Made by a program: the position numbers and the translations under genes
The notes under the pieces: model-generated
Database searches by the model: none
The model's input: only the letters and a program-made list of their open reading frames with translations
Told to the model about the DNA's origin: nothing
Assembly: GCF_000025325.1 (NCBI RefSeq)
Contig: NC_013743.1
Location: 2,418,001 to 2,482,000, forward strand
Direction: 5' to 3'
From: Haloterrigena turkmenica DSM 5511
Lineage (GTDB): Archaea; Halobacteriota; Halobacteria; Halobacteriales; Natrialbaceae
Length of the DNA: 64,000 nt
In this document: piece after piece, positions 33,011 through 37,057 of the stretch
How the letters are laid out: every line of letters begins with the position of its first letter
How positions within the stretch are numbered: position 1 is the stretch's first letter

Positions 33011-33703
33011 TCAGTCCTCGAGTCCGCGCTCGGAGAGTTCACGGATCCGTTCGCTCCCGCTGTCGACGTAGCCGCCGTGGTAACAGACCACGTGCTCGAT
33101 TTCGCGGGTCGCCAGCTCGCCGACTGAGTCGAGGGCGCGATCCATGTCGGGCGTGAACTCGGGCTTCGGGCCCGACAGGGTGCCGTCTACGTCGTCCGCG
33201 ACGAGAGCGTCCCCGGCGATCAAGAAGCCGTCCTCCGGAAAGTACAGGGAAACGTGTCCGGGCGCGTGGCCCGGCGTCTCGAGGACGTCCATCGGGCCGG
33301 CGAGGGTCGGGATCCGGACGCCGCCGGCGAGTTCCAGATCGACGTCGACGGGGGGATAGCGGTCGCCGTCGCCCTTGATGGGGTCGCGCTCGCCGGTGAC
33401 GTACGGCGCCTCCTCGCGGTGGGTCGCGACGACCGCGTCGACGGCTTCGAGCAACTCGTCGAGTCCGCCCGCGTGATCGGCGTCGTGGTGGGTTAACACG
33501 ACGAGCCAGATGTCCTCGAGAGCGTAGCCGAGCGATCGAAGGTGCGTGCGAATGCCCTCGAGCGACCCCTCCGGACCGGCGTCGATCAGGACTGGTCCGC
33601 GCTCGGTCTCGACCAGCGTCGGAGTGAGCGTGAGCGTTCGATTACCGTACTCTACCGTGATCGGGAGCGTGTGGACGCCCGCCTCGCGTTCGTCTGCCGG
33701 CAT
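33011..33703 (-). CDS. Metallo-beta-lactamase-fold hydrolase
   Basis: This 230-residue hydrolase has the zinc-binding signature LTHHDADHAGG (about residues 73-83), then TPGHAPGHVSLYF (about 143-155), GDALVADD and a late His (CYHGG). That is the glyoxalase II/quorum-quencher-like group. The ATG at 33703 (MPADEREAGVHTLPI) is chosen over upstream frame extensions of unrelated composition. The substrate is unknown. It is divergent from the candidate terpene synthase. Confidence 0.87.
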   Translation of the reverse strand: MPADEREAGVHTLPITVEYGNRTLTLTPTLVETERGPVLIDAGPEGSLEGIRTHLRSLGYALEDIWLVVLTHHDADHAGGLDELLEAVDAVVATHREEAPYVTGERDPIKGDGDRYPPVDVDLELAGGVRIPTLAGPMDVLETPGHAPGHVSLYFPEDGFLIAGDALVADDVDGTLSGPKPEFTPDMDRALDSVGELATREIEHVVCYHGGYVDSGSERIRELSERGLED

Positions 33704-33810
33704 ACTCGAGTCGTTCGCTCCCAGCACGAAAGGACTGTCCGTCCGGTTCCCTCGCGTCGCCCGCCGTGGGGCGACAACTATCCATTGCAATCTAAACAAT
33801 TAGCAAAAAA

Positions 33811-33818
33811 TACTTTTA
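33811..33818 (+). promoter_or_regulatory. TATA box and upstream inverted repeat for the candidate terpene synthase
   Basis: TACTTTTA is centred about 29 bases before the ATG at 33844, so the message would be nearly leaderless; a GAGG motif nine bases before the ATG could still act as a ribosome-binding site. Just upstream, TTGCAAT at 33785-33791 and ATTAGCAA at 33799-33806 form an imperfect inverted repeat that could bind a regulator. The whole 33785-33835 stretch is unusually A/T-rich. Confidence 0.5.
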
Positions 33819-33843
33819 GTTTCAATTATGTATGAGGTAAACG

Positions 33844-34839
33844 ATGGCTGCCGAGTCGCAGTTCCCTAGCCTCGAGGACGAGATCGATCCGTTTGCGAAC
33901 GCACCGACGCGGACGCTCTCGGAGACGGTTCGGCCGCTGGCCAACGCCTACGACGAGCGGATCGGCGACCGGGATCGATCGACGTGGCGGTGGTTCGACG
34001 CGGTCGAACCCGAGTTTCGCCTGTCCTGTGTCGACGACGAGCGCGGCCGGCACGTTCGCGACGCGAAGGTGCTCGCCACGATGTTCATCACCGTCATCGA
34101 CGACGTCGCCGAGCGACACGGCGACCGAGCGACCCTCGAGGAACTGCTACTCGTCCCGTTCGACTCGCGACCGGCCGATCCGACCCGCGACGGCGTCGAC
34201 GGCGAGTACGTTCGGTTCCAGCAGGAGCTCTGGGACGCGCTGTTGTCGCAGTTCCGGGAGAGTTCGCGGGCCGAGGAGTTCGAACCGCTGTTCCGGTTCG
34301 ACGTGCGCCAGGCGCTCCAGTCAGTCGACTACTCGGCGCTGCTGGCCCGGTATCCCGGCCTCGCCGGCGAGCGCGAGCTCCAAACCTACGACGTCTACAA
34401 CATGATGCTCTTCCCGTTCGCCGATATCGACCTCGCGACCTCCTCCGGATTCGAGATGCGCGACCTCTCGGCCGTTCGGGATGTCGTCGCCCATGGGCAG
34501 CGGATGGCGCGGATCGGGAACTGGATCGCCACCTGGGAGCGCGAGCTCGCCGAGGGCGACTACAGTTCGGGCGTCGTGGTCCGCGCCCTCGAGTCCGGCG
34601 TTGTGTCGGTCGACGAACTCCGGGCGCTCCGACGGGAGCCGTCCGAGGAGGCGGTCAGCGTGATCGCCGAACGGATCCGCGGCGCCGGCATCGAAGCCGC
34701 GTTCGTCGAGCAGTGGCGCCGCGAGTACGAGCGGGGCGCCGACTACTGCGGCGAGATCGAGTCGATCGACGTCCGGGCGTACCTCGATGGGTTCGTCCCG
34801 ATCTTCCGCTCGCAGCTCGCGCGCCGGTCCGGAGCCTGA
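33844..34839 (+). CDS. Candidate class I terpene synthase
   Basis: This 331-residue, all-helical protein carries the paired metal-binding motifs of class I terpenoid cyclases. Asp-rich DDVAE is at residues 86-90, in the helix LATMFITVIDDVAERHGD. An NSE-type triad NWIATWERE places N226, T230 and E234 at the right spacing (N-x3-T-x3-E), followed by LAEGDYSSGVVV, also typical. R177 lies about 49 residues before the triad, where the pyrophosphate sensor sits in bacterial enzymes. Length and the 140-residue gap between motifs fit. The usual ND of the NSE motif is NW. I see no prenyltransferase-type second DDxxD. Neighbours give no pathway. The substrate would be a prenyl diphosphate. Confidence 0.65.
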   Translation: MAAESQFPSLEDEIDPFANAPTRTLSETVRPLANAYDERIGDRDRSTWRWFDAVEPEFRLSCVDDERGRHVRDAKVLATMFITVIDDVAERHGDRATLEELLLVPFDSRPADPTRDGVDGEYVRFQQELWDALLSQFRESSRAEEFEPLFRFDVRQALQSVDYSALLARYPGLAGERELQTYDVYNMMLFPFADIDLATSSGFEMRDLSAVRDVVAHGQRMARIGNWIATWERELAEGDYSSGVVVRALESGVVSVDELRALRREPSEEAVSVIAERIRGAGIEAAFVEQWRREYERGADYCGEIESIDVRAYLDGFVPIFRSQLARRSGA

Positions 34840-34890: not shown

Positions 34891-36096
34891 CTACTCGAGG
34901 GCCATCTCGATCGCGCTCTCGAGGTCGCCGATCAGATCGTCGACGTGTTCGATGCCGACGCTCACGCGAACGAGGCCGTCCGTGAGCCCCGCTTCGACGC
35001 GCTCCTCGCGGGGAATGGCGGCGTGGGTCATCGGCGCTGGCTGTTCGATCAGGCTCTCGACGCCGCCGAGGCTTTCCGCGAGGGTGAAGACGTCGGTGTT
35101 CGAGACGACCTCGCTTGCCTCCTCCATGCTCGCGTCGAGTTCGAAGCTCAGCATCCCGCCGAAGTCGTCCATCTGCTCGGCGGCGATCTCGTGGCCCGGA
35201 TGGGACTCGAGGCCGGGGTAGTAGACGCGGTCGACGTCGGGGTGGTCGTCGAGCCACTCGGCGATGGCGCGGGCGTTCTCGCAGTGGCGGTCCATGCGGA
35301 CGGGCAGGGTCTTGGTGCCCCGGAGGACGAGGAAGCACTCGAAGGGACCCGGCGTCGCACCGACGGAGTTCTGGTAGAAGCCCAGTCGCTCGTCGAGGTC
35401 GGCGTCGTTGGTCAGCAGCGCGCCGCCGACGACGTCCGAGTGGCCGCCCAGATACTTCGTCAGGGAGTGCGAGACGATATCTGCACCCAGATCGAGCGGC
35501 CGCTGGAGGTACGGCGTCGCGAAGGTGTTGTCGATCGCACAGAGCGCGTCGTTGTCGTGAGCGATCTCGGCCGCGCCCGCGATGTCGACGATCGACATGA
35601 GCGGATTGGTCGGCGTCTCGAGCCAGAGCAGTTCCGTCTCCTCGCGGAACGCGGCCTCGATCTCACCGAGGTCGGTCATATCGACGAACGAGAACTCGAG
35701 GTCGTACTCCTCGTAGACCTGCGTGAAGATGCGGTGGGTGCCGCCGTAGACGTCGTTGCCGGTGACGACGTGATCACCGGCCTCGAGGAGGTTGAGCACG
35801 GTGTTGATCGAGGCCATCCCGCTGGCGAACGCGCGGCCGTGGGCGGCGTTCTCGAGGCTCGCGAGGTTTTCCTCGAGATCCGTGCGGGTCGGATTCCCGG
35901 TCCGGGAGTACTCGTACCCGCGGTGGTCGCCCGGCGCGTCCTGTTTGTACGTGGAGTTCGCGTGAATCGGCGTCATCAGCGCGCCCGTTTCGGGATCGGG
36001 CTCCTGTCCGGCGTGGATCGAGCGGGTCTCGATTCGACGTGGCTCCTGCTCGCCGCGGCCGTCGGCGCCGTCTCCATCGCTGTCGGAGTCGTCCAT
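34891..36096 (-). CDS. Cystathionine gamma-synthase/lyase-family PLP enzyme
   Basis: This 401-residue Cys/Met-metabolism PLP enzyme has an acidic ~22-residue N-terminal tail before the fold starts at [12 protein letters not shown]. The active-site lysine is K214 in [13 protein letters not shown]. The phosphate-binding and substrate motifs [11 protein letters not shown] and [15 protein letters not shown] are standard. It makes cystathionine from O-acyl-homoserine and cysteine, or cleaves it. The subfamily (MetB, MetC-like or CGL) cannot be decided from motifs. MetE genes lie 6 kb away. Confidence 0.9.
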
Positions 36097-36183: not shown

Positions 36184-36873
36184 TTACTGGAGCTGTCGGC
36201 GCTTCGGCGACTCCGTGACCGAGGCCGAGACGACGTGATCGACGAGCTTCGCCTCGATCTTCCGGAGGTGTTCGCCGACCGTCCCGCCCGCGATACCGAC
36301 CTCGCGACCGATCTCCTCGTAGGTCGTCTCTCGAGGCGAGCCGTAGTAGCCGAGTTCGATCGCCGTCTCGAACAGTCGGCGCTGTTTCGGCGTGAGCGAC
36401 GCGAGGAAGACGTTCTCCTCGGGTTCGAACGGTTGTTTCGTCTCGAGGGTGAGATCGACGGTGTCGGGCACGACCGACCGTGCCCGCTGGAACGACTCCT
36501 CGGTCGCGAACAGCGACACCTTGAGGTCGCCACCGCGGACGTACGTCAGCGGCGGGTCGAGGAACACCTGAAAGTCCCGCGTCACCCGCAGGAGTTCGCT
36601 GACGGTGTCGTTGGGAACGAACCGCGAACAGACGAAAATTCGGTCGCCGAACTCCTCGATCCAGTAGCCGAGCGAGCCGAGCTCCTCGTCGACGAGCGCC
36701 TCGACGCGTTCGAACTCTCCCGCGAGTTCGTAGACCATCACCCCGAGCCCGTCGGGGCGGAGACGGATCCGGTGGATCGCCACGCGATCGACCCCTTCGC
36801 GGCGATCGATCCGCTTTTCGAACGGATGAAACCAGCCACCCTGCGGCGAGAGCCGAAGTTCGTACTGACGCAT
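36184..36873 (-). CDS. Bat-like HTH-10 transcription regulator
   Basis: This 229-residue haloarchaeal regulator has an N-terminal ~150-residue sensory region without a recognised fold (RQYELRLSPQGGWFHPFEKR). A C-terminal HTH-10 domain follows at about 165-215 (LTPKQRRLFETAIELGYYGS, then TYEEIGREVGIAGGTVGEHL), as in Bat and related activators. The ATG at 36873 follows a TTTATTG box on the minus strand near 36902-36909. Its target is not evident; the PLP-enzyme gene 88 bases beyond its stop is on the same strand and is a possible one. Confidence 0.88.
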   Translation of the reverse strand: MRQYELRLSPQGGWFHPFEKRIDRREGVDRVAIHRIRLRPDGLGVMVYELAGEFERVEALVDEELGSLGYWIEEFGDRIFVCSRFVPNDTVSELLRVTRDFQVFLDPPLTYVRGGDLKVSLFATEESFQRARSVVPDTVDLTLETKQPFEPEENVFLASLTPKQRRLFETAIELGYYGSPRETTYEEIGREVGIAGGTVGEHLRKIEAKLVDHVVSASVTESPKRRQLQ

Positions 36874-37057
36874 CAATGCGTGTGGATACCACAGGGTCCC
36901 TTCAATAAACACCCGCTACGCTCCCAGTGAGCGAGAACCGGCCGACCGACCGCGCGCCCTCCAGTGATCAGCTCGCTGCACCGGCCGGTTTTGCCGTCAC
37001 TACCGCCAGACGGCGGGCCGATCGGCTCGTCACCGCCGCGGCCGTACGAATACGTGC

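What the first reader, a model, noticed from the sequence alone, without database searches (positions are those of the whole stretch)
33844..34839. Candidate class I terpene synthase in a haloarchaeon
An unannotated-looking 331-residue helical protein has DDVAE at 86-90, an NSE-like N226/T230/E234 triad in NWIATWERE, an Arg (R177) about 49 residues before it, and the right spacing and length. Positions are close to those of bacterial sesquiterpene synthases. Archaeal class I terpene cyclases are hardly known, and haloarchaea make large pools of prenyl diphosphates for their lipids. The NSE motif begins NW rather than ND, so it would be a variant. It has its own A/T-rich promoter and an upstream inverted repeat, suggesting regulation.
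Basis: partly seen in the sequence, partly recalled or inferred. Interest (0 to 1): 0.78.

Follow-up and report, generated by a model that had tools for sequence, protein, structure and literature searches.

The report
Unannotated archaeal class I terpene synthase
The gene very probably encodes an enzyme that turns the salt-loving archaeon's lipid building blocks into terpenes (the chemical class of scents and resins); it belongs to an archaeal family found in about a third of sampled haloarchaeal genomes and in some methanogens, filed as 'hypothetical protein' in the annotated records checked, and often lying beside sensor and regulator genes.

Summary
The class I terpene synthase reading is supported by sequence, conservation and fold. 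The protein scores just under Pfam's Terpene_syn_C_2 cut-off (23.1 against 23.7 bits); several relatives score over it. In 70 non-redundant haloarchaeal homologues (26-76% identity), Asp87, Asn226, Trp227 and Glu234 are invariant; Asp86, Thr230 and Glu90 nearly so. A model with pLDDT 94.6 and pTM 0.92 finds only terpene synthases among its 16 best PDB matches. The proposed diphosphate-sensing Arg177 is not conserved (21/70), nor is any Arg at the canonical Asn-46 position, nor the upstream inverted repeat. The family occurs in 119 of 391 haloarchaeal genomes (39 of 86 genera) and in other Halobacteriota, including an inferred Methanosarcina acetivorans; no bacterial or viral member turned up in the collections searched. 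Across the family, the adjacent gene is unusually often a PAS/Bat/histidine-kinase signalling protein or a FilR1-type regulator, but not directly at the window's own locus. Product and activity are unknown. Archaeal terpenoid biosynthesis is already claimed in the title of a 2025 preprint I could not read, so this is a new variant of a known kind.

The parts
33844..34839 (+). CDS of the class I terpene-synthase-like protein, 331 aa, stop included
   Evidence: ORF; Terpene_syn_C_2 match over residues 80-256; orthologues; dN and dS values
34099..34113 (+). Aspartate-rich motif D86-D87-V-A-E90 (first metal-binding motif)
   Evidence: D87 70/70, D86 68/70 (2 Asn), E90 61 Glu + 9 Asp in non-redundant homologues
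34519..34545 (+). Variant NSE motif N226-W-I-A-T230-W-E-R-E234 (second metal-binding motif)
   Evidence: N226, W227, W231, R233 and E234 in 70/70, T230 in 69/70
34372..34374 (+). R177, proposed diphosphate-sensor Arg; NOT conserved
   Evidence: Arg in only 21/70 homologues; the canonical position (N226 minus 46 = residue 180) also varies
33790..33835 (+). A/T-rich promoter-like stretch, partly conserved in orthologues
   Evidence: alignment of eight upstream regions
33756..33775 (.). Short inverted repeat GTCGCCC-6-GGGCGAC; not conserved, probably incidental
33011..33799 (-). Divergent neighbour: metallo-beta-lactamase-fold hydrolase (likelier ATG start at 33703, leaving about 140 bp between the genes)
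   Evidence: Pfam Lactamase_B; a clustered homologue lies directly upstream in most of the nearest relatives' loci
34891..36096 (-). Convergent neighbour: Cys/Met-metabolism PLP enzyme
   Evidence: Pfam Cys_Met_Meta_PP 2.5e-154
36184..36912 (-). HTH_10 (Bat-type) regulator with HVO_0513 N-terminal domain, second gene downstream; link to the synthase not shown
   Evidence: Pfam HTH_10 4.6e-14, HVO_0513_N 1.2e-27

Best explanation
The gene encodes a class I terpene synthase of an archaeal family. SHOWN by computation: a class I isoprenoid-synthase fold nearest to bacterial and fungal terpene synthases; a conserved DDxxE/D motif and a conserved N-W-x-x-T-W-x-R-E motif on helices; purifying selection; wide occurrence in Halobacteria and related methanogens. 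INFERRED: the two motifs bind three Mg2+ ions and the diphosphate of an allylic prenyl diphosphate (FPP, GGPP or the C25 GFPP that haloarchaea use for lipids), trigger loss of diphosphate, and a contoured pocket steers the carbocation to a small terpene hydrocarbon or alcohol. Expression is probably set by environmental sensing in many lineages, since the neighbouring gene is often a PAS/Bat/histidine-kinase protein or a FilR1-type regulator.
For: Pfam PF19086 at 7e-5 over residues 80-256; all 8 close orthologues and 48 of 70 homologues match, best 8e-8, and members of other genomes pass the curated cut-off. Motif conservation in 70 non-redundant homologues, extending to methanogens. Model pLDDT 94.6, pTM 0.92; its 16 best PDB matches are all terpene synthases (VenA 3.8e-5; T-muurolol synthase TM 0.58/0.62). 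The local motif resembles bacterial ones: RIGNWIATWERELAEGD against RLGNDVASHRREQAAGD in Stt4548. No polyprenyl-synthetase or squalene/phytoene-synthase Pfam match at E up to 10. dN well below dS. Neighbour enrichment.
Against: The window protein is 0.6 bits under the Pfam cut-off. TM-scores are modest (about 0.5-0.6) and the superpositions loose (rmsd 5.6-9 A for the terpene synthases), so the relationship is distant. No Arg is conserved at the canonical sensor position (N minus 46) and R177 is not conserved. Sequence profiles find no PDB chain significantly (best E = 0.038). No dedicated prenyltransferase or P450 was identified among the neighbours. No activity or metabolite is known.
Confidence: 0.77

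Rival explanations
1. A terpene-synthase-fold protein that ionises prenyl diphosphates but makes a linear product (prenyl alcohol or alkene), or acts as a prenyl transferase or diphosphatase tied to membrane-lipid control rather than as a cyclase.
For: Canonical sensor Arg absent and NW in place of ND; family-wide link to sensory genes; prenyltransferases (PcIDS1, FPP synthase) also appear among the structural matches.
Against: The second motif is N-T-E, not the second DDxxD of polyprenyl synthetases; the best structural matches are cyclases.
Confidence: 0.15
2. A former terpene synthase turned sensory or regulatory protein that binds a prenyl diphosphate without turnover and signals through the adjacent PAS/Bat/HK protein.
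For: Strong adjacency to PAS, histidine-kinase, Bat, HalOD1 or FilR1 genes in several different arrangements; coding overlap with an HTH regulator in one annotated locus.
Against: Metal ligands near-perfectly conserved at 26-50% identity, typical of a catalytic site; many loci, including the window's, lack an immediate signalling partner.
Confidence: 0.06
3. A coincidental helical protein unrelated to terpene synthases.
For: Only weak direct sequence similarity to solved terpene synthases.
Against: Pfam, motif conservation and fold agree independently.
Confidence: 0.02

Closest known systems
Pfam PF19086 Terpene_syn_C_2 (bacterial class I terpene synthases)
   Same: Fold, DDxxE and N-x-x-x-S/T-x-x-x-E metal motifs, length, RE and GD around the second motif
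   Different: Invariant Trp instead of Asp after the Asn; no conserved sensor Arg at N-46; window protein just below the cut-off; archaeal
T-muurolol synthase (Roseiflexus, PDB 9hqz/9hqm), VenA (7y9g), LrdC (6oh8), Sat1646 (7e4n)
   Same: Best structural matches; Sat1646, LrdC and astellifadiene synthase are also the top terpene-synthase sequence matches, none significant
   Different: 12-17% identity; TM 0.5-0.6
trans-polyprenyl diphosphate synthases (GGPP/FPP synthase)
   Same: Class I isoprenoid fold; first Asp-rich motif
   Different: Second motif is NSE-type, not DDxxD; no PF00348 match in a scan to E 10
Archaeal terpene synthases claimed by Samusevich et al., bioRxiv 10.1101/2024.01.29.577750
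   Same: Title reports terpenoid biosynthesis in archaea (cited in PMC12797696)
   Different: Text not held here; whether its enzymes belong to this family could not be checked
Bat regulator (bacterio-opsin activator; controls bop, crtB1 and brp in Halobacterium, from own knowledge)
   Same: PAS-GAF-BAT-HTH_10 proteins of this type lie next to many family members; a precedent for PAS-type control of isoprenoid genes
   Different: Not immediately adjacent in the window; control of this gene untested

Membership tests
Class I terpene synthase (PF19086) | Profile match | tested here: inconclusive
   Window protein 23.1 bits against cut-off 23.7; 8/8 close orthologues match at E<=1 and 48/70 homologues at E<=0.01; matches over the cut-off in 5 of 21 related genomes
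Class I terpene synthase (PF19086) | Asp-rich motif DDxx(D/E) | tested here: met
   D87 70/70, D86 68/70, E/D90 70/70
Class I terpene synthase (PF19086) | NSE/DTE triad (N/D)xxx(S/T)xxxE | tested here: met
   N226 70/70, T/S230 70/70, E234 70/70; W at the usual second-position D
Class I terpene synthase (PF19086) | Diphosphate-sensor Arg 46 residues before the NSE Asn | tested here: not met
   Residue 180 is W/E/R/D mixed (R in 10/70); R177 in 21/70; the Arg is 46 before the Asn in LrdC and aligned in other solved terpene synthases
Class I terpene synthase (PF19086) | Class I alpha-helical terpenoid fold | tested here: met
   pTM 0.92 model; top PDB matches are terpene synthases
Class I terpene synthase (PF19086) | Mg2+-dependent conversion of a prenyl diphosphate to a terpene | not testable with these tools
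   needs enzyme assay
Polyprenyl diphosphate synthase (PF00348) | Two DDxxD motifs and profile match | tested here: not met
   Only one Asp-rich motif; no PF00348 match at E up to 10
Squalene/phytoene synthase (PF00494) | Two DxxxD motifs and profile match | tested here: not met
   No match at E up to 10; motif pattern differs

The most novel reading that the evidence does not exclude
The family makes a terpenoid messenger that is sensed or controlled by the adjacent PAS/Bat/histidine-kinase or FilR1-type protein, that is, a small-molecule signalling or volatile-communication system shared by haloarchaea and Methanosarcina, based on an archaeal class I terpene synthase with a non-canonical diphosphate sensor.
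Probability: 0.12. Interest if true: 0.88.

Novelty: new variant of a known kind. Interest (0 to 1): 0.6.

Why it matters
Archaea build all their membrane lipids from prenyl diphosphates, yet terpene-forming enzymes in them are barely documented. A family present in about 30% of sampled haloarchaeal genomes and in methanogens (one inferred to be the genetically tractable Methanosarcina acetivorans), listed as 'hypothetical protein' in the annotated records checked, would mean terpenes may be a widespread archaeal product. The conserved NW variant and missing sensor Arg pose a mechanistic question. The repeated link to PAS-type sensors and FilR1-type regulators gives a testable idea of when and why archaea make such compounds.

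Tried and rejected
R177 as sensor: rejected, not conserved. Upstream inverted repeat as operator: not conserved. Sigma-70 scan: not meaningful for archaea. A Halobellus neighbour named 'prenyltransferase/squalene oxidase repeat', considered as a class II partner: Pfam prefers glycosidase-type (alpha/alpha) models. Viral relatives: none. Bacterial relatives: tblastn of the window protein and of the M. acetivorans homologue in 72,556 plasmid records found only haloarchaea; bacterial chromosomes were reached only by one scan for close relatives, which returned haloarchaea only. First model from 8 sequences was mediocre and was replaced. Profile against a single bacterial synthase gave no significant alignment. 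Neighbour labels were first made with profiles seeded from neighbours (biased), so the enrichment was repeated with Pfam. One search fetched an unrelated paper through a DOI I guessed wrongly; one search failed on coordinates.

Full report
OBSERVATION. The window holds an ATG-initiated 331-codon ORF at 33844-34839 (+). It is a real gene: seven orthologues in Haloterrigena, Natrinema and Natronorubrum are 65-93% identical over the full length, and dN/dS against six of them is about 0.15-0.43, from dN and dS. The genome carries one copy. Six related plasmid genes are all annotated 'hypothetical protein'.

IDENTITY. Pfam's Terpene_syn_C_2 matches residues 80-256 at E = 7.2e-5, 23.1 bits against a cut-off of 23.7; the only other match up to E = 10 is the related plant-type Terpene_synth_C. 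All eight close orthologues match (best 5.9e-7), 48 of 70 wider homologues match (best 8e-8), and matches over the cut-off occur in 5 of 21 related genomes. NCBIfam gives nothing for the window protein and one marginal unrelated match among 70 homologues. A model built on 70 homologues has mean pLDDT 94.6 and pTM 0.92. Its 16 best PDB matches are all terpene synthases (VenA E = 3.8e-5, T-muurolol, biformene, 10-epi-cubebol, aristolochene and hydropyrene synthases), with TM-scores of about 0.5-0.6, so the fold is right and the kinship distant. An earlier, poorer model also found only class I isoprenoid-fold proteins in its top 50.

CONSERVATION. In 70 haloarchaeal homologues under 80% identical to one another (26-76% identical to the window protein), D87, N226, W227, W231, R233, E234, D239, R223, R212, D196 and D309 are invariant; D86 is 68/70, T230 69/70 plus one Ser, and position 90 is Glu (61) or Asp (9). 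The pattern RIGNWxxTWERELxEGD parallels RLGNDVASHRREQAAGD of the solved bacterial Stt4548, with Trp for the non-ligand Asp. The sensor Arg of canonical enzymes, 46 residues before the Asn (seen in LrdC and aligned in other solved synthases), has no conserved counterpart: position 180 is mixed, R177 is Arg in 21/70. What senses the diphosphate is open; invariant R223, R233 or R43 are candidates (inference).

DISTRIBUTION. 119 of 391 sampled Halobacteria genomes, 39 of 86 genera, carry a homologue. Outside the class the family occurs in other Halobacteriota: two close groups, and a distant group of Methanosarcina-like genomes that keep the Asp motif and N-T-E. One has a chromosome of 5,751,492 bases, which equals Methanosarcina acetivorans C2A (identification from own knowledge of that size). 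One methanogen-group copy has lost both motifs (L106) and others are broken by stops, so the gene decays in places. The tree keeps the methanogen sequences outside the halobacterial ones (quick tree, unrooted). No viral and no bacterial relative turned up in the collections searched.

NEIGHBOURHOOD. Directly beside the gene stand a metallo-beta-lactamase-fold hydrolase (divergent) and a Cys/Met PLP enzyme (convergent); an HTH_10/HVO_0513-type regulator follows at 36184-36912. A clustered homologue of the hydrolase lies directly upstream in most of the loci of the nearest relatives examined. Elsewhere in the family the pattern is different and unexpected: the adjacent gene is often a Bat-type PAS-GAF-BAT-HTH_10 protein, a PAS histidine kinase, HalOD1 or a FilR1/HVO_A0261-type regulator, and in all seven Methanosarcina-like loci a PAS-HisKA_2 kinase upstream in the same direction. 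Among representatives under 60% identical, 16 of 84 adjacent genes but 10 of 326 genes four or more places away are PAS/GAF/HK/Bat/HalOD1 proteins (odds ratio 7.4, p = 2.5e-6); at 42% identity the ratio is 8.8 (p = 0.003). Because those labels came from profiles seeded with neighbours, I repeated the count with Pfam: PAS_9 in 15 of 84 adjacent against at most 1 of 110 distant genes; HATPase_c 10 against at most 1; FilR1_middle 7 against at most 1; BAT 5 against 2. Partner types and orientations differ between clades (13 changes of type on the tree), so the association arose or was reshuffled several times. Gene calls in these loci are my own, and adjacency shows linkage, not control.

MECHANISM. 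Most likely: Mg2+-dependent ionisation of an allylic diphosphate from the lipid pathway and formation of a small terpene. Steps shown: fold, motifs, selection, distribution, gene association. Steps inferred: metal binding, substrate, product, regulation. Substrate length cannot be told.

KNOWN OR NEW. It works like a class I terpene synthase and meets the fold and both metal-motif criteria, fails the sensor-Arg criterion, and sits just below the Pfam cut-off. So the claim is 'works like a class I terpene synthase, as a divergent archaeal branch', not a full canonical member. Reports of 'terpene clusters' in haloarchaea (PMC8600319; PMC6939163) do not, in the passages I read, identify this enzyme. 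[quoted passage not shown] it may already cover members of this family, which lowers the novelty claim. The link to sensory and regulatory genes was not found in any paper I could reach.

Noticed in passing
L041-L097, L098-L099, L107-L113 (family loci): Terpene-synthase-like genes are strongly enriched next to PAS/Bat/histidine-kinase signalling genes and FilR1-type regulators, in several different arrangements.
   Followed up: partly
L106:7998-8780 and L104-L105, L114: Degenerate or fragmented family members in one methanogen-group lineage: L106 has lost the Asp, Asn and Glu ligands.
   Followed up: no
L037:90-1151 and 1450-2472: Two tandem copies of the synthase-like gene in one haloarchaeal genome.
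   Followed up: no
L085, L088, L090, L091: In one clade the synthase-like gene lies divergently to an archaeal type II/IV secretion ATPase (T2SSE; tested in L085).
   Followed up: no
L058:9049-10569: A KaiC-like ATPase is convergent with one family member.
   Followed up: no
L108:6696-7502: A SAM methyltransferase follows the synthase-like gene in the inferred M. acetivorans; possible tailoring enzyme.
   Followed up: no
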